DNA of 64,000 nt, from positions 1 to 64,000 of the forward strand of contig JADLBH010000023.1 in assembly GCA_020847855.1 (NCBI GenBank). Reading direction: 5' to 3'. This stretch comes from Fimbriimonadaceae bacterium. GTDB taxonomy: Bacteria > Armatimonadota > Fimbriimonadia > Fimbriimonadales > Fimbriimonadaceae. The translations under genes and the position numbers were made by a program. Under the pieces are notes generated by a model that did not search any database, had not been told where the DNA came from, and saw only the letters and a list, made by a program, of their open reading frames with translations. Below, piece by piece: positions 23,434 through 45,917 of the stretch (positions within the stretch are counted from its first letter, which is position 1; each line of letters starts with the position of its first letter).

Positions 23434-24492
23434 CTACAAGGTGGCAAACTGTTCCAAGTATCCCCGGATTGCGACGGTGATCGGTTGTTCGAGGAAGATT
23501 GCGGCGATGGCGCCGGCGGCCAGGTACGGCCCGAAAGGGATCGTGGTCAGATCCACCTTGGGGTCTTCCTCGATCCCTTCGTAGTCGTAGGGATCCTCTC
23601 CAAACCACCTTTGGTAGAGTTCTGGAAGCGCTTTGTTCCCTCGCGAGCGGTTGATCCCTTCCATCACGAGTCCGATCACGTCAATGCAGAGCAAGTACCC
23701 GAGGCCACAACGGAGCAAGGACCCCAGGGATTCCGGCCCTTGTTCTTCCAGCGCCTCCTCCTCGCCAGGCTCCTCGCTCGACTTCCTGCCCAGCGCGATC
23801 CCGAGTCCGATCACGGCCCCGACCGTCACCGCGATCCCGAACGACGCGAAGGCAAGCAAAGGGAACAAGACTGCGCCCGTCCCACGCGCGAGCTTGATGT
23901 CGCCATGGCCCATCGCGTCCTTGCGGAACAGGAGCCGCCCCAGGAACGCGATCCCCCATAAGACCCCCACGCCGCACAGTGCACCGGCCACCGAGGAGGG
24001 CATGCCCCAGGTCCAGGCCTCGGGCCTGCCCTGCAGGATCATGACCAGGTTCATGACCAGGCCGATGACCAGGATCCAGGCGTTGATCTGGTCAGGAATG
24101 ATGTAGTACGCGAGATCGGTGAAGACAACGGCCACGAGGCAGGCCGACATCAGCATATAAGCGACCGCCCTGACCGGATCGCCATCCGTGTGGCTCCCGC
24201 TGAGGTACATCCACCAGATGCCTGCCCAAAGGGATGCGTTGATGAGCTCGACCACCACGTAGCGAACGCTGACCCTCGTGCCGCACTGGCGGCACTTCCC
24301 GCCTTGGACCACCCAACTGAGGATCGGCACCAGTTCGAGCCACGAGAGGCGGTTCTTACACGATGGGCAGAAGCTGTGTCGCGGCTCGTTCACGGAGAGC
24401 CCGCGCGGGAGCCGATAGATCACGACGTTCAAAAAGCTGCCTATGGCAGCCCCGATCCAAAATCCGATGATCCACGTCCACTCAGGAAACAA
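23434..24492 (-). CDS. pilD: Prepilin peptidase with an acidic insertion (A24 family)
   Basis: Bifunctional membrane aspartyl protease/methylase that processes the prepilins encoded beside it. The N-terminal domain has FLNVVIYRLP and two zinc-type pairs, CPSC (42-45) and CRQC (67-70). The catalytic aspartates are D126 (in TDLAYYIIPD) and D198 in GHGD, a variant of the usual GMGD. Unusually, residues about 236-316 insert an acidic stretch (EEPGEEEALEEQG) plus an extra hydrophobic segment before the conserved IPFGPYLAAGA helix, giving 352 aa instead of about 260-290. The start is TTG with GAGGG six bases upstream. It follows pilC. Confidence 0.93.
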   Translation of the reverse strand: MFPEWTWIIGFWIGAAIGSFLNVVIYRLPRGLSVNEPRHSFCPSCKNRLSWLELVPILSWVVQGGKCRQCGTRVSVRYVVVELINASLWAGIWWMYLSGSHTDGDPVRAVAYMLMSACLVAVVFTDLAYYIIPDQINAWILVIGLVMNLVMILQGRPEAWTWGMPSSVAGALCGVGVLWGIAFLGRLLFRKDAMGHGDIKLARGTGAVLFPLLAFASFGIAVTVGAVIGLGIALGRKSSEEPGEEEALEEQGPESLGSLLRCGLGYLLCIDVIGLVMEGINRSRGNKALPELYQRWFGEDPYDYEGIEEDPKVDLTTIPFGPYLAAGAIAAIFLEQPITVAIRGYLEQFATL

Positions 24493-42478: not shown

Positions 42479-43363
42479 GTGAAGGTTAGGATCGTCGAGG
42501 TCGGGCCCAGGGACGGTCTCCAGAACGAGGCGACGCCCGTCTCGACCCAGTCAAAGGCCGCCTTCGTCGCATCCCTGGCCGCGGCGGGTCTTCACGAGAT
42601 TGAGGCGACGAGCTTTGTCTCGCCCAAGTGGGTTCCTCAACTTGGCGACGCGGAGGAGCTGTGGCCCCGGTTGCCGACAGGACCCTTATACAGTGCTCTG
42701 GTCCCCAACCTGCGCGGCCTCGAACGGGCGGTCGGCCTTGGCGTTCGGCGGATCGCGCTCTTCACCGCTTCGAGCGACCTGTTCACAAAGCGGAACATCA
42801 ACATGACCGTGGAAGAGTCCCTCGCGGTCGCAGGCGAGGTGATCCGCGCCTTTCGTAAGTCCGTCCCGGAGGGCTTCGTCCGAACCTACGTGAGCACCGC
42901 CTTCGAGTGTCCCTATGCAGGCCGCATGGCTCCCTCGGTCACGGCGGGCGTCGCTGGGCGCTTGCACGACCTCGGCGCGGACGAGGTGGCGATGGGGGAC
43001 ACGATCGGGGTGGCGAGCCCCTCCGAGGTCCGATCCCTCGCCTCTACCCTGGAGGTACCGCTCTCCAAGACCGCGTGGCACTTTCACGATACGCGGGGGA
43101 CGGCGATCGCAAATGTGGCCGCCTGCCTGGAACTGGGCTACTCCTCGTTCGACTCGAGCGCAGGGGGCCTGGGCGGGTGCCCCTATGCCAAAGGCGCGGG
43201 TGGAAACCTCGCCACCGAGGACCTCGTCTACTTTTGTTCCCGCGAGGGTTTCGAAACCGGCGTTGATCTGCCAAGCCTCGCGCGGGCTAGTCTCCCGGTG
43301 CTGGAGGCCGTTGGCCGGTCCCCGTTTGCGCGGGCCCAACTGGCAGTGCTGGCGGCTTCGTAA
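42479..43363 (+). CDS. mvaB: Hydroxymethylglutaryl-CoA lyase
   Basis: Cleaves HMG-CoA to acetyl-CoA and acetoacetate, the last step of leucine breakdown. The TIM-barrel enzyme begins VKVRIVEVGPRDGLQNE, with the catalytic Arg-Asp pair, and has ATSFVSPKWVPQL, the metal-binding HFHDTRG motif, and GGLGGCPYAKGAGGN carrying the catalytic Cys. The 294 aa length is typical. The GTG at 42479 has GGGAGG five bases upstream; an ATG at 42419 would add 20 residues read through the terminator and is less likely. It overlaps the convergent membrane protein by 77 bases. Confidence 0.93.
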   Translation: MKVRIVEVGPRDGLQNEATPVSTQSKAAFVASLAAAGLHEIEATSFVSPKWVPQLGDAEELWPRLPTGPLYSALVPNLRGLERAVGLGVRRIALFTASSDLFTKRNINMTVEESLAVAGEVIRAFRKSVPEGFVRTYVSTAFECPYAGRMAPSVTAGVAGRLHDLGADEVAMGDTIGVASPSEVRSLASTLEVPLSKTAWHFHDTRGTAIANVAACLELGYSSFDSSAGGLGGCPYAKGAGGNLATEDLVYFCSREGFETGVDLPSLARASLPVLEAVGRSPFARAQLAVLAAS

Positions 43364-44213
43364 GTCGAGACCAGACCCCGAACCCCGCCAGAAAGACCGC
43401 GATCGCGCCCACGAAGGCCGTCATCGCCTTTTCTTGTGGGGCGAGCCGGAACTCTCCTCGGTTGACGAGGATCACAGTGAGCCCGATGGGGACGAGCGCG
43501 GGCAACATGCCAAGACCGATCGGGAGCATCACGAGGATCAGGTATCCGACGAGCGCGACAACCAGCCAACGGGCGGTCTCGCGGGCCCGCATCTCGAAGC
43601 GATAGAGGGCGACGAAGAACATCGCGGAGAAGAAGACGTCGGCTGGACCGACGTAGGCGAACGGTTCGATCTTCGGCTCCTTCGGCGCTCGCCCTGGAGC
43701 CGCCTCCCTCGCCATCGGCACTTCGAGCGCCACGGAGCTCAAGATCTCGGGGTTCTGCGACATCACTTTCGCCACGGGCCCGCTCGGGTGAAAGACGAAG
43801 AAGACATCCAAACCGGCCAAGAACAGTGCGACGGGGAGGAGCAGATTCCTCTCCTTGATGAGCGACGCGACCAGGGCACCCAGGCCCGTACACCATGCAA
43901 CGAGCCCAAACTGGCCGAAGGACTGCACGATCAGGCCCAGGACACCCTCGCCCAAAGGAGTCCGGGCGAGCAGCAACGCACCGCCCTGGAGGACGATCCC
44001 GCCCACGATGAACGCGACGGCGTGGGTCCGGGTCCAAGGATGTGAGCCCGCCCAGAAAACCGCGAGCACGGGGAGCCCGACGAACGCTACGACGGAGAGC
44101 ACATCGAGGAACGGCGCCGCCGCGGCAGGAAACTCAAGAAGTCCAAGGGCGATCCGAAGGGCGAACAGCACCCCGGTCAGAAGGAAGTACCCGGCAAGCC
44201 CGTTAGAGCGCAA
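43287..44213 (-). CDS. Presenilin / signal-peptide-peptidase-like membrane protein (candidate GxGD protease)
   Basis: Polytopic 308 aa protein with about eight or nine hydrophobic segments. It carries the three signatures of A22 intramembrane aspartyl proteases in order and spacing: LDVFFVF (D136; usual YDxFxVF), then VAKVM, then YVGPADVFFSAMFFVALYRF (D192; usual LGLGD then ALLLRFD), and LPALVPIGL (residues 237-245; the PAL motif) followed by VNRGE. YD is changed to LD and GLGD to GPAD, but both aspartates and PAL remain. The cytoplasmic-side loop is Pro/Lys-rich. The TTG start has AGAGGAAGG upstream and overlaps the glycosyltransferase stop by 11 bases. The substrate is unknown, and the protease call is inference from motifs. 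Confidence 0.72.
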   Translation of the reverse strand: MRSNGLAGYFLLTGVLFALRIALGLLEFPAAAAPFLDVLSVVAFVGLPVLAVFWAGSHPWTRTHAVAFIVGGIVLQGGALLLARTPLGEGVLGLIVQSFGQFGLVAWCTGLGALVASLIKERNLLLPVALFLAGLDVFFVFHPSGPVAKVMSQNPEILSSVALEVPMAREAAPGRAPKEPKIEPFAYVGPADVFFSAMFFVALYRFEMRARETARWLVVALVGYLILVMLPIGLGMLPALVPIGLTVILVNRGEFRLAPQEKAMTAFVGAIAVFLAGFGVWSRLTKPPALPVGPAQTGTGQRPPAPGD

Positions 44214-45393
44214 GCGCCTTCCTCTCGGTGCGGCCGTCCAAGGAGAGGAGACGCCGGTAGGCGTCGAGCATGCGGTCCGCCATCGCGCTCGTGGTCATGG
44301 TCTCCGCGTGAGCCTTCGCCCTGCCACCCATCCGGCCTCGGAGATCTCGGTCCCGAACGAGCGTGGTGATTCGATCCGCCATGCGGAGCGCGTCGTTCTC
44401 GACAATGAAGCCCGTCTCACCTTCGAGAACCGCCGCGCTCGCGCCCCCTCCTCCCACGACCACCGTTGGCAGGCGGTAGCTCATCGCCTCCGCGACCACA
44501 AGGCCCTGGGTCTCCGTCATTGAGCCGAACGTGAAAACGTCGGCCGCGGCATAGAACTGATCCACCTCGGAACGAGGGACACCGCCCCAAAAACGTACTC
44601 GATCCCCGATCTGGAGGGCCCGTGCCATCGCAGTGTAGTGGTTCCGTGCGGGGCCATCGCCCACGAGCCAGAGTCGAAAGTCAGGATGATCGGCCACCAC
44701 CTCTGCGGTCGCTCGGAGGACGACCTCGATGTTCTTCTCGATGGCGATCCGACCGCAATAGAGGCCGACGCAGTGGTTCTCACCGACCCCAAGCTCGCGG
44801 CGGGCGGCTTGACGTTCGATCGCCTTGGGCAAAGGGATCCCGGTGGGAACGATCTCGGCCGGGGTGTGGACGGAGTGCCTGCGCAACCATCGGAGCGTCG
44901 GTTGGCTAGGACATGCCACGAGTCCCACGCTGTTGTAATAGAAGTGGGTGTGCTTTGCGACCTTGTAACGGACATAGGGGCGGGGGAAGAACGGGACATA
45001 GTGCGCGTACTTGTCGTACCGGGTGTGGTAGGTGGAGACGACGGGCAAGTCGAGGGTCTGGGCCCAGCGTAGGCCGACCATGCCTACCGTGAACGGCGTG
45101 TGGGTGTGGACCAGGTCGAAGTTGCGCTGCTCGAACTCGCGGAACCAAGCATAGAACGGCGGCACCGCCAGGGGGTAGTCGCCTGTCCAAGGCGACCTCA
45201 CCGAAAGGAAGCGGCGAAAGTTCGGATCAGGGTCGCTGTGCCCCCGGAACCGGCTCGTGTACACCGTGACGGAATGGCCGCGGTCACGGAGGGAGCCGAT
45301 CAGTGAGTCAATGCTGACGCTGACGCCATTGAGCACGGGCAGGACGGAATCGGAGAAAACGGCGATGCTGAGCGGCCGTGAGGGAAGGCTCAA
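44203..45393 (-). CDS. GT4-family glycosyltransferase
   Basis: GT-B retaining glycosyltransferase, close in pattern to bacterial glycolipid/diacylglycerol glucosyltransferases. The N-terminal FSDSVLPVLNGVSVSI with NGV, the middle VHTHTPFTVG and VSTYHTRYDKYAHY, and the C-terminal EKNIEVVLRA, LVGDGP, FWGGVPRSE and the E-x7-E motif (SMTETQGLVVAEAMS) are all present. No membrane segment is seen; such enzymes bind the membrane peripherally. The TTG start overlaps the HTH gene's stop. It may supply a glycolipid or exopolysaccharide; the acceptor cannot be inferred. Confidence 0.9.
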   Translation of the reverse strand: MSLPSRPLSIAVFSDSVLPVLNGVSVSIDSLIGSLRDRGHSVTVYTSRFRGHSDPDPNFRRFLSVRSPWTGDYPLAVPPFYAWFREFEQRNFDLVHTHTPFTVGMVGLRWAQTLDLPVVSTYHTRYDKYAHYVPFFPRPYVRYKVAKHTHFYYNSVGLVACPSQPTLRWLRRHSVHTPAEIVPTGIPLPKAIERQAARRELGVGENHCVGLYCGRIAIEKNIEVVLRATAEVVADHPDFRLWLVGDGPARNHYTAMARALQIGDRVRFWGGVPRSEVDQFYAAADVFTFGSMTETQGLVVAEAMSYRLPTVVVGGGGASAAVLEGETGFIVENDALRMADRITTLVRDRDLRGRMGGRAKAHAETMTTSAMADRMLDAYRRLLSLDGRTERKALAL

Positions 45394-45917
45394 TCCTCGG
45401 GCACCCGGCCATGCCGGTCAACGAACGAGACGATATGGCTCAACCGGAACCTGCGCTGGCCACCTTTGGTCCGAACGTGGTCGAGCCAGCCTCGGTTCGT
45501 GTACCGTCGGATCGTGGCCGGGCACACCCCGAGCAACCGGCTTGCGTCCTCCAGGTTGATTTCCGGGTCCACTAGCTTGCGGATGAGTTCTGCGCGCGAC
45601 TCTTTGAAGCCATCCTGGTAGTAGTGTCCCGTCACCTCGTCAGAGAAGAATCGGCCCAGGAACTCGATGTTGCGGGGGAGTTTCTCGAGCATCTGTTGGA
45701 GGTCGGAGTCCACGAACGCGCGCCCTGCCGTGCCTCGGGCACGACGGGGTCTCGGCGCCTGTAGCGCCGTCTTACGGAACTTTGTCTTTGCGCCCTGCTT
45801 GGTTGTTCTCTTCCGCTTCTCCTTGAGCGGTTCGATCGGTGCCACGCCTTCCGGGTTGGTGTCAAGGAACGCGTTCTCGATATAAGCCAGCGGGTCGAAG
45901 TCTTGACGATCGGTCAT
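45390..45917 (-). CDS. MerR/excisionase-type HTH DNA-binding protein
   Basis: The C-terminal 50 residues (INLEDASRLLGVCPATIRRY and then GWLDHVRTKGGQRRFRLSHI) form a winged helix-turn-helix of the MerR/excisionase class. The N-terminal half is a basic, low-complexity segment (EKRKRTTKQGAKTKF), followed by a helical part (LQQMLEKLPRNIEFLGRFF). It is not a full MerR, having no C-terminal dimerisation helix. It lies between queA and the glycosyltransferase and may control this operon, which is inference. The ATG at 45917 follows a possible TATAGT -10 box. Confidence 0.75.
   Translation of the reverse strand: MTDRQDFDPLAYIENAFLDTNPEGVAPIEPLKEKRKRTTKQGAKTKFRKTALQAPRPRRARGTAGRAFVDSDLQQMLEKLPRNIEFLGRFFSDEVTGHYYQDGFKESRAELIRKLVDPEINLEDASRLLGVCPATIRRYTNRGWLDHVRTKGGQRRFRLSHIVSFVDRHGRVPED

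What the first reader, a model, noticed from the sequence alone, without database searches (positions are those of the whole stretch)
43287..44213. Bacterial presenilin/SPP-like protein with altered GxGD motif
One protein carries LDVFFVF, GPADVFFSAMFFVALYRF and LPALVPIGL in the right order and spacing for a presenilin/signal-peptide-peptidase core, plus shared minor matches (VAK after the first motif, RF after the second, RGE after PAL). A22 proteases are well known in eukaryotes and archaea but rare in bacteria. Both catalytic aspartates are kept although the flanking Tyr and Gly are changed. It sits downstream of a lipid-type glycosyltransferase and an HTH protein.
Basis: partly seen in the sequence, partly recalled or inferred. 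Interest (0 to 1): 0.8.

Follow-up and report, generated by a model that had tools for sequence, protein, structure and literature searches.

The report
Presenilin-type protease core to Armatimonadota
The gene encodes a bacterial relative of presenilin, the membrane-embedded protease behind Alzheimer's amyloid, and it turns out to be a near-universal but unannotated gene of one whole bacterial phylum.

Summary
The 308-aa minus-strand ORF at 43287-44213 belongs to a single-copy family found in 187 of 201 sampled genomes of its phylum (Armatimonadota; the window is Fimbriimonadaceae). No Pfam or NCBIfam model recognises it. In 111 homologues both aspartates (D136, D192) and the first Gly of GxGD are invariant. 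The window protein reads GPAD, but 49 of 111 have a true GxGD; PAL is largely kept; the Tyr of YD is not. A template-free AlphaFold2 model (pLDDT 93) finds only presenilin-1, SPPL2a and archaeal PSH above background (18 chains, Z 8.1-13.5; next unrelated 5.6). A second, distant homologue repeats this (23 chains, Z 9.4-14.3; next 6.8). Profile-profile alignment to a presenilin/SPP core runs in one piece through Asp1, Asp2 and PAL (E 8e-8; best of 300 shuffles scores under half). Positive-inside charge favours SPP orientation. Best reading: an active intramembrane aspartyl protease cleaving N-in transmembrane segments such as spent signal peptides. The classical bacterial SppA is absent from the window's genome and nearly all of its family, though present in about half the phylum. 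Activity, substrates and Asp-Asp distance are untested.

The parts
43287..44213 (-). Presenilin/SPP-like polytopic membrane protein, 308 aa, TTG start
43791..43811 (-). First catalytic motif LDVFFVF (aa 135-141) with invariant D136 (codon 43806-43808)
   Evidence: aligned to PS1 D257 / SPP YD
43596..43649 (-). Second catalytic motif GPADVFFSAMFFVALYRF (aa 189-206) with invariant G189 and D192 (codon 43638-43640)
   Evidence: aligned to GxGD of PS1, SPP and SPPL2a
43479..43505 (-). PAL motif LPALVPIGL (aa 237-245) at the start of predicted helix 8
43431..43463 (-). Conserved cytosolic-side segment N251-E261 between helices 8 and 9 (N 107/111, E 111/111)
44217..44226 (-). Shine-Dalgarno-like GAGAGGAAGG upstream of the TTG start, inside the 3' end of the GT4 gene
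   Evidence: sequence
44203..45393 (-). GT4 glycosyltransferase; its stop overlaps the start of the protease gene by 11 nt; same-strand upstream neighbour in 37 of 42 family loci
45390..45917 (-). HTH_17/MerR-type DNA-binding protein, first gene of the conserved three-gene row in Fimbriimonadaceae

Best explanation
The gene encodes an intramembrane aspartyl protease homologous to presenilin and signal peptide peptidase. It forms a new, divergent bacterial family that is a near-universal, single-copy gene of Armatimonadota. Nine predicted helices carry D136 in helix 5, D192 at the start of helix 6 and the PAL motif at the start of helix 8; a beta hairpin precedes the second catalytic helix. The two aspartates are inferred to activate a water molecule and cut a substrate transmembrane helix unwound against the PAL/beta-strand region, as in presenilin. 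Charge distribution puts the helix 5-6 loop outside and the 6-7 and 8-9 loops in the cytosol, the SPP orientation, so the expected substrates are N-in (type II or signal-peptide-like) segments. The most likely physiological role is removal of leftover signal peptides and small N-in membrane stubs. In Fimbriimonadaceae, where SppA is missing, it may be the main enzyme for this. Shown: conservation, predicted fold, homology, distribution, SppA absence. Inferred: catalysis, orientation. Speculative: substrate class.
For: Conservation: D136, D192, G189 111/111. Fold: AF2 pLDDT 93.2, pTM 0.89. VIA-align: the 18 best chains are all A22 proteases, PS1 Z 13.5 / 3.0 A / 191 aligned, SPPL2a 12.0, archaeal PSH 10.2, next unrelated 5.6. 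Foldseek places PS1 at ranks 1-6 with probability 0.91-0.99. A second, distant homologue (24% identical) gives PS1 14.3, SPPL2a 13.0, PSH 11.4, PS2 11.1, next unrelated 6.8. Sequence: family HMM against a PS1+SPP+SPPL2a core scores 53.6, E 8.1e-8, probability 94.5% over 105 columns joining Asp1, Asp2 and PAL; 300 local column shuffles have mean 12.9, max 24.4, and the reversed core 13.6. Single-sequence comparisons with PS1, SPP and SPPL2a each exceed every shuffle. The A24 prepilin peptidases, the ordinary bacterial GxGD class, give no signal: at most 21.6, no motif aligned. Topology: K+R per 10 residues is 1.55, 2.46, 3.18, 2.22 in loops 2-3, 4-5, 6-7, 8-9 against 0.34, 1.01, 0.74, 0.37 in loops 1-2, 3-4, 5-6, 7-8. 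Distribution: 187/201 genomes, 134/141 of good quality, 118/122 genera. SppA (PF01343): none in 37 Fimbriimonadaceae genomes; signal peptidase I is present in all 21 tested.
Against: No Pfam or NCBIfam match over cut-off. The Tyr of YD is absent, and the GxGD Gly is Ala in 62/111 including this protein. Only four helices precede the first catalytic helix (five in presenilin/SPP) and one extra helix follows the PAL helix. No activity data exist. The Asp-Asp distance was not measured. SppA co-occurs with this gene in about half the phylum, so simple replacement does not explain its conservation. Other intramembrane proteases (site-2, M50) are present too. Neighbours change outside the family, so gene context gives no substrate clue.
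Confidence: 0.82

Rival explanations
1. Same enzyme, but a regulatory (RIP-type) protease that releases membrane-held regulators, or an SPPL3-like sheddase acting on membrane-anchored glycan enzymes, rather than a signal-peptide scavenger.
For: In Fimbriimonadaceae it sits in a translationally overlapping row with an HTH protein and a GT4 glycosyltransferase in 37 of 42 loci. The SPPL3 precedent of cleaving glycosyltransferases is in PMC7768045. It coexists with SppA in about half the phylum.
Against: The GT4/HTH linkage is lost outside the family (pyrR/pyrB genes, or leuS next door instead) while the protease stays. The GT4 has only its two GT domains in Pfam.
Confidence: 0.3
2. A bacterial prepilin peptidase (A24), the ordinary GxGD protease of bacteria.
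For: Shares the GxGD-Asp idea; A24 enzymes may vary the motif (GxHyD in Saci_0139 PibD, PMC4343526).
Against: No Pfam A24 match. hhalign to A24 proteins of the same phylum gives background scores. The window's genome carries a separate A24 gene inside this window. The fold hits are all A22.
Confidence: 0.02
3. A presenilin-fold protein that has lost proteolysis and serves another role (scaffold, channel, lipid handling).
For: The YD Tyr and often the GxGD Gly are changed; no Pfam cut-off reached.
Against: Both aspartates and G189 are 111/111 over a very diverged family, and PAL is mostly kept, the pattern of a retained active site.
Confidence: 0.12
4. Chance motif resemblance in an unrelated polytopic membrane protein.
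For: Sequence identity to presenilin is only 11-17% in structural alignments, and HMMER finds nothing.
Against: Profile-profile E 8e-8 with shuffled maximum 24.4 against 53.6; two independent models with all-A22 top hits.
Confidence: 0.02

Closest known systems
Presenilin (PS1/PS2, PF01080, MEROPS A22A)
   Same: Fold (Z 13.5-14.3), two Asp in neighbouring helices, PAL at the start of a late helix, P-x-G after the first Asp helix as in PS1 CPKGP, beta strands before the second catalytic helix.
   Different: Predicted opposite orientation; four rather than five helices before Asp1; extra C-terminal helix; short Asp1-Asp2 loop; no Tyr at YD; Ala in place of the GxGD Gly in about half; no partner subunits known; below the Pfam cut-off.
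Signal peptide peptidase / SPPL (PF04258, A22B; archaeal SPP PF06550)
   Same: Fold (SPPL2a Z 12-13), predicted orientation, RF-[DE] after the second motif, an I/V-x-V/F-P strand before the second motif.
   Different: N terminus predicted cytosolic; one helix fewer before Asp1 and one more at the end; YD Tyr missing; below cut-off of both Pfam models.
Archaeal PSH / MCMJR1 of Methanoculleus marisnigri
   Same: Stand-alone prokaryotic enzyme with the same fold (Z 10.2-11.4).
   Different: PSH keeps YD and GxGD but lacks an obvious PAL (PMC2947513); this family keeps PAL but loosens YD and GxGD.
Prepilin peptidases (PF01478, A24)
   Same: Bacterial GxGD aspartyl proteases of the membrane.
   Different: No sequence match and no A24 structure among the listed fold hits; the genome has its own A24 gene.
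SppA (PF01343, S49)
   Same: Proposed shared task: degradation of cleaved signal peptides.
   Different: Unrelated serine-type enzyme; absent in Fimbriimonadaceae, present elsewhere in the phylum.

Membership tests
Presenilin/SPP superfamily (A22-type GxGD proteases), by homology and fold | Two Asp in adjacent transmembrane helices, both conserved | tested here: met
   D136 and D192 111/111; helices 122-141 and 190-205 in the model
Presenilin/SPP superfamily (A22-type GxGD proteases), by homology and fold | Presenilin fold | tested here: met
   All top 18 and top 23 VIA-align chains are A22, clear gap below
Presenilin/SPP superfamily (A22-type GxGD proteases), by homology and fold | Profile homology linking Asp1, Asp2 and PAL | tested here: met
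   E 8.1e-8, shuffled control max 24.4 vs 53.6
Presenilin/SPP superfamily (A22-type GxGD proteases), by homology and fold | PAL motif near the C terminus | tested here: met
   LPAL in the window protein; P238 105/111, A239 80/111, L240 104/111
Presenilin/SPP superfamily (A22-type GxGD proteases), by homology and fold | Strict GxGD | tested here: not met
   GPAD in the window protein; GxGD in 49/111 and GxAD in 62/111 of the family
Presenilin/SPP superfamily (A22-type GxGD proteases), by homology and fold | YD at the first aspartate | tested here: not met
   L135 here; F/V/I/L/A etc. in the family
Presenilin/SPP superfamily (A22-type GxGD proteases), by homology and fold | Nine transmembrane helices with catalytic Asp in TM6 and TM7 and PAL at TM9 | tested here: not met
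   Nine predicted helices, but Asp in helices 5 and 6 and PAL at helix 8
Presenilin/SPP superfamily (A22-type GxGD proteases), by homology and fold | Asp-dependent intramembrane proteolysis | not testable with these tools
   needs biochemistry
Presenilin/SPP superfamily (A22-type GxGD proteases), by homology and fold | Catalytic Asp side chains within reach of each other | not tested
   model coordinates are not exposed by the tools
Pfam PF01080 / PF04258 / PF06550 | Score over the curated cut-off | tested here: not met
   No hit for the window protein; best members E 0.072 for PF01080 and 0.015 for PF04258; PF06550 0/201 genomes and PF04258 0/61 over cut-off
A24 prepilin peptidase (PF01478) | Profile match to A24 | tested here: not met
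   No Pfam match; hhalign at background

The most novel reading that the evidence does not exclude
A third major branch of presenilin-type proteases, ancestral to and vertically kept in a bacterial phylum, with its own helix arrangement (four helices before Asp1, one extra after PAL) and a relaxed GxAD active site, serving as a core signal-peptide/membrane-stub protease and replacing SppA in some lineages. This would make the protease family older and more widespread in bacteria than the usual archaeal-origin picture.
Probability: 0.4. Interest if true: 0.85.

Novelty: new variant of a known kind. Interest (0 to 1): 0.74.

Why it matters
Presenilin/SPP proteases are studied as eukaryotic and archaeal enzymes; reviews read here list them in eukaryotes and archaea, and no paper found in the held library describes a bacterial clade (open-access papers only). 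A near-universal, single-copy bacterial family gives small stand-alone enzymes that keep the PAL motif which the archaeal model enzyme lacks, a natural series of GxGD to GxAD active sites, and a bacterial lineage where deletion could show what an ancient presenilin-type enzyme is for. It also adds a bacterial phylum to the question of where these proteases came from.

Tried and rejected
HMMER-level searches (Pfam, NCBIfam, PDB) did not find presenilin above threshold; presenilin was the Pfam family weakly matched by most members (6/68, best E 0.072), which is only a hint. A first genome-contig scan with the window protein found nothing; a second with distant homologues found 22 loci; those with an informative title are Armatimonadota, Fimbriimonadaceae, Chthonomonadia or Chthonomonas, apart from two titled Actinomycetota, one of which is the record of an in-phylum genome. 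Viral contigs and plasmids: none. Strict replacement of SppA was considered and rejected as a phylum-wide rule: PF01343 is over cut-off in 96 of 201 genomes, mostly alongside this gene. A functional link to the GT4 enzyme was rejected as general: neighbours differ in other families. hhalign with default realignment collapsed on single-sequence templates and was rerun without realignment; the first shuffle control timed out and was rerun smaller. A null of 15 unrelated membrane ORFs was too small alone and was replaced by shuffles.

Full report
Observation. The DNA confirms the codons of D136 (43806-43808) and D192 (43638-43640), and by eye shows a Shine-Dalgarno-like GAGAGG 7 nt before the start. 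The start lies 11 nt inside the end of a GT4 glycosyltransferase gene (44203-45393), which itself overlaps an HTH_17/MerR-type gene (45390-45917); families.

Family. A protein search of 101 related genomes found a homologue in 93, and a profile search of 201 genomes of the phylum found 187, including 134 of 141 good-quality genomes and 118 of 122 genera, nearly always one copy. The contig named Fimbriimonadaceae (392,987 bases) has the length of the contig of genome G026, in the window's own family. So this is a core gene of Armatimonadota, not a stray acquisition. It is missing from a reduced genus (g29, 1.5 Mb) and from one family (f18).

Conservation. In 111 sequences D136, D192, G189, G112, P127 and E261 never vary; N251 is 107/111, P238 of PAL 105/111, L240 104/111. 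The residue before D192 is Gly in 49 and Ala in 62, so the family spans GxGD and GxAD. One distant member (L133) reads GLGDFIFLAFFLAAVWRFGL, close to presenilin (GLGDFIFYSVL) and SPP (GLGDVVIPGIFIALLLRFDI). The Tyr of YD is not kept. A change at the second Gly has a precedent in the A24 class, where Sulfolobus PibD was redefined as GxHyD (PMC4343526).

Fold. AlphaFold2 on the family alignment, without templates, gave pLDDT 93.2 and pTM 0.89. Foldseek's best PDB hits are human presenilin-1 (E 0.02, probability 0.99). VIA-align 2 ranks 18 chains first, all A22 proteases: PS1 Z 13.5 (3.0 A, 191 residues), SPPL2a 12.0, archaeal PSH 10.2; the next, unrelated, chain is at 5.6. A second model for a homologue from another family (L053, 24% identical) gave 23 A22 chains at Z 9.4-14.3 including PS2 and PSH, the next at 6.8. 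The gap, and the agreement of presenilin, SPPL and PSH in both searches, matter more than the absolute Z, since helical bundles can reach 13 by chance.

Sequence homology. HMMER does not see it: no curated Pfam or NCBIfam presenilin/SPP match over cut-off for any member. Profile-profile comparison does. Against single sequences of PS1, SPP and SPPL2a the best alignment puts D192 on the GxGD Asp in every case and D136 on the YD Asp for PS1 and SPP, scoring above every one of 264-312 local shuffles each. Against a three-sequence core of the same proteins it scores 53.6 (E 8.1e-8, probability 94.5%) over 105 columns running through Asp1, Asp2 and PAL; 300 shuffles reach at most 24.4 and the reversed core 13.6. 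Prepilin peptidases from the same phylum score at background.

Topology. K+R density in loops over 70 sequences alternates and gives N-in, nine helices, helix 5 (Asp1) running inside-out, the 5-6 loop outside, and the 6-7 and 8-9 loops inside. That is the orientation of SPP, which cleaves type II segments, and opposite to presenilin (review PMC7768045). Compared with presenilin/SPP there is one helix fewer before Asp1 and one more after PAL. The structural alignments begin at helix 2 and end at residue 255-262, so helices 1 and 9 have no counterpart in them.

Function. Invariant aspartates over this divergence argue for an active protease. N-in orientation fits signal peptides and type II stubs. 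SppA (S49), the usual bacterial signal peptide peptidase, is absent from all 37 Fimbriimonadaceae genomes (one genome of the family has it), while signal peptidase I is present in all 21 genomes tested. In the wider phylum SppA is over cut-off in 96 of 201, usually together with this gene, so the two are not simple alternatives. Site-2 proteases are present as well. Neighbourhoods are fixed within Fimbriimonadaceae (GT4 upstream in 37 of 42, HMG-CoA-lyase-like gene convergent in 36) but differ elsewhere (pyrimidine genes, or leuS), which speaks for a general rather than a pathway-specific role. The signal-peptide reading is therefore the most likely substrate class but not shown; a regulatory or shedding role is the main rival.

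Membership and novelty. By fold and profile homology it belongs with presenilin and SPP. By the strict textbook features (YD, GxGD, catalytic helices 6 and 7) and by Pfam cut-offs, it is not a member of the three described families. It is best filed as a new, divergent bacterial family of the presenilin/SPP group. Literature searches of the open-access library found no description of a bacterial clade; one review calls what is probably the archaeal PSH a 'bacterial presenilin homologue' in passing. Subscription papers, including Raut et al. 2021 on archaeal roots of these proteases, could not be read, and other bacterial phyla could hardly be searched here, so phylum restriction is not claimed.

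Noticed in passing
window 43287-43363: The protease gene and the convergent HMG-CoA-lyase-like gene overlap at their 3' ends by 77 bp; antisense 3' overlaps of roughly 64-178 bp recur in nearly all Fimbriimonadaceae loci.
   Followed up: partly
window 23803-24153 (-): A prepilin peptidase (A24, the ordinary bacterial GxGD protease) lies in the same window.
   Followed up: partly
phylum-wide: SppA (PF01343) is absent from nearly all Fimbriimonadaceae and, apart from weak partial matches, from the other families of the order that were sampled, though common in the rest of the phylum.
   Followed up: partly
L159 (G145 contig 1, 5630767-5632599): Two tandem copies of the protease gene in one large genome.
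   Followed up: no
L053, L055, L058, L060, L061, L063: In distant families the gene sits directly upstream of leuS on the same strand.
   Followed up: no
window 43431-43880 (aa 112, 127, 251, 261 of the protein): G112, P127 and E261 are invariant and N251 nearly so, but have no named role in presenilin motifs; they may define the bacterial family.
   Followed up: no
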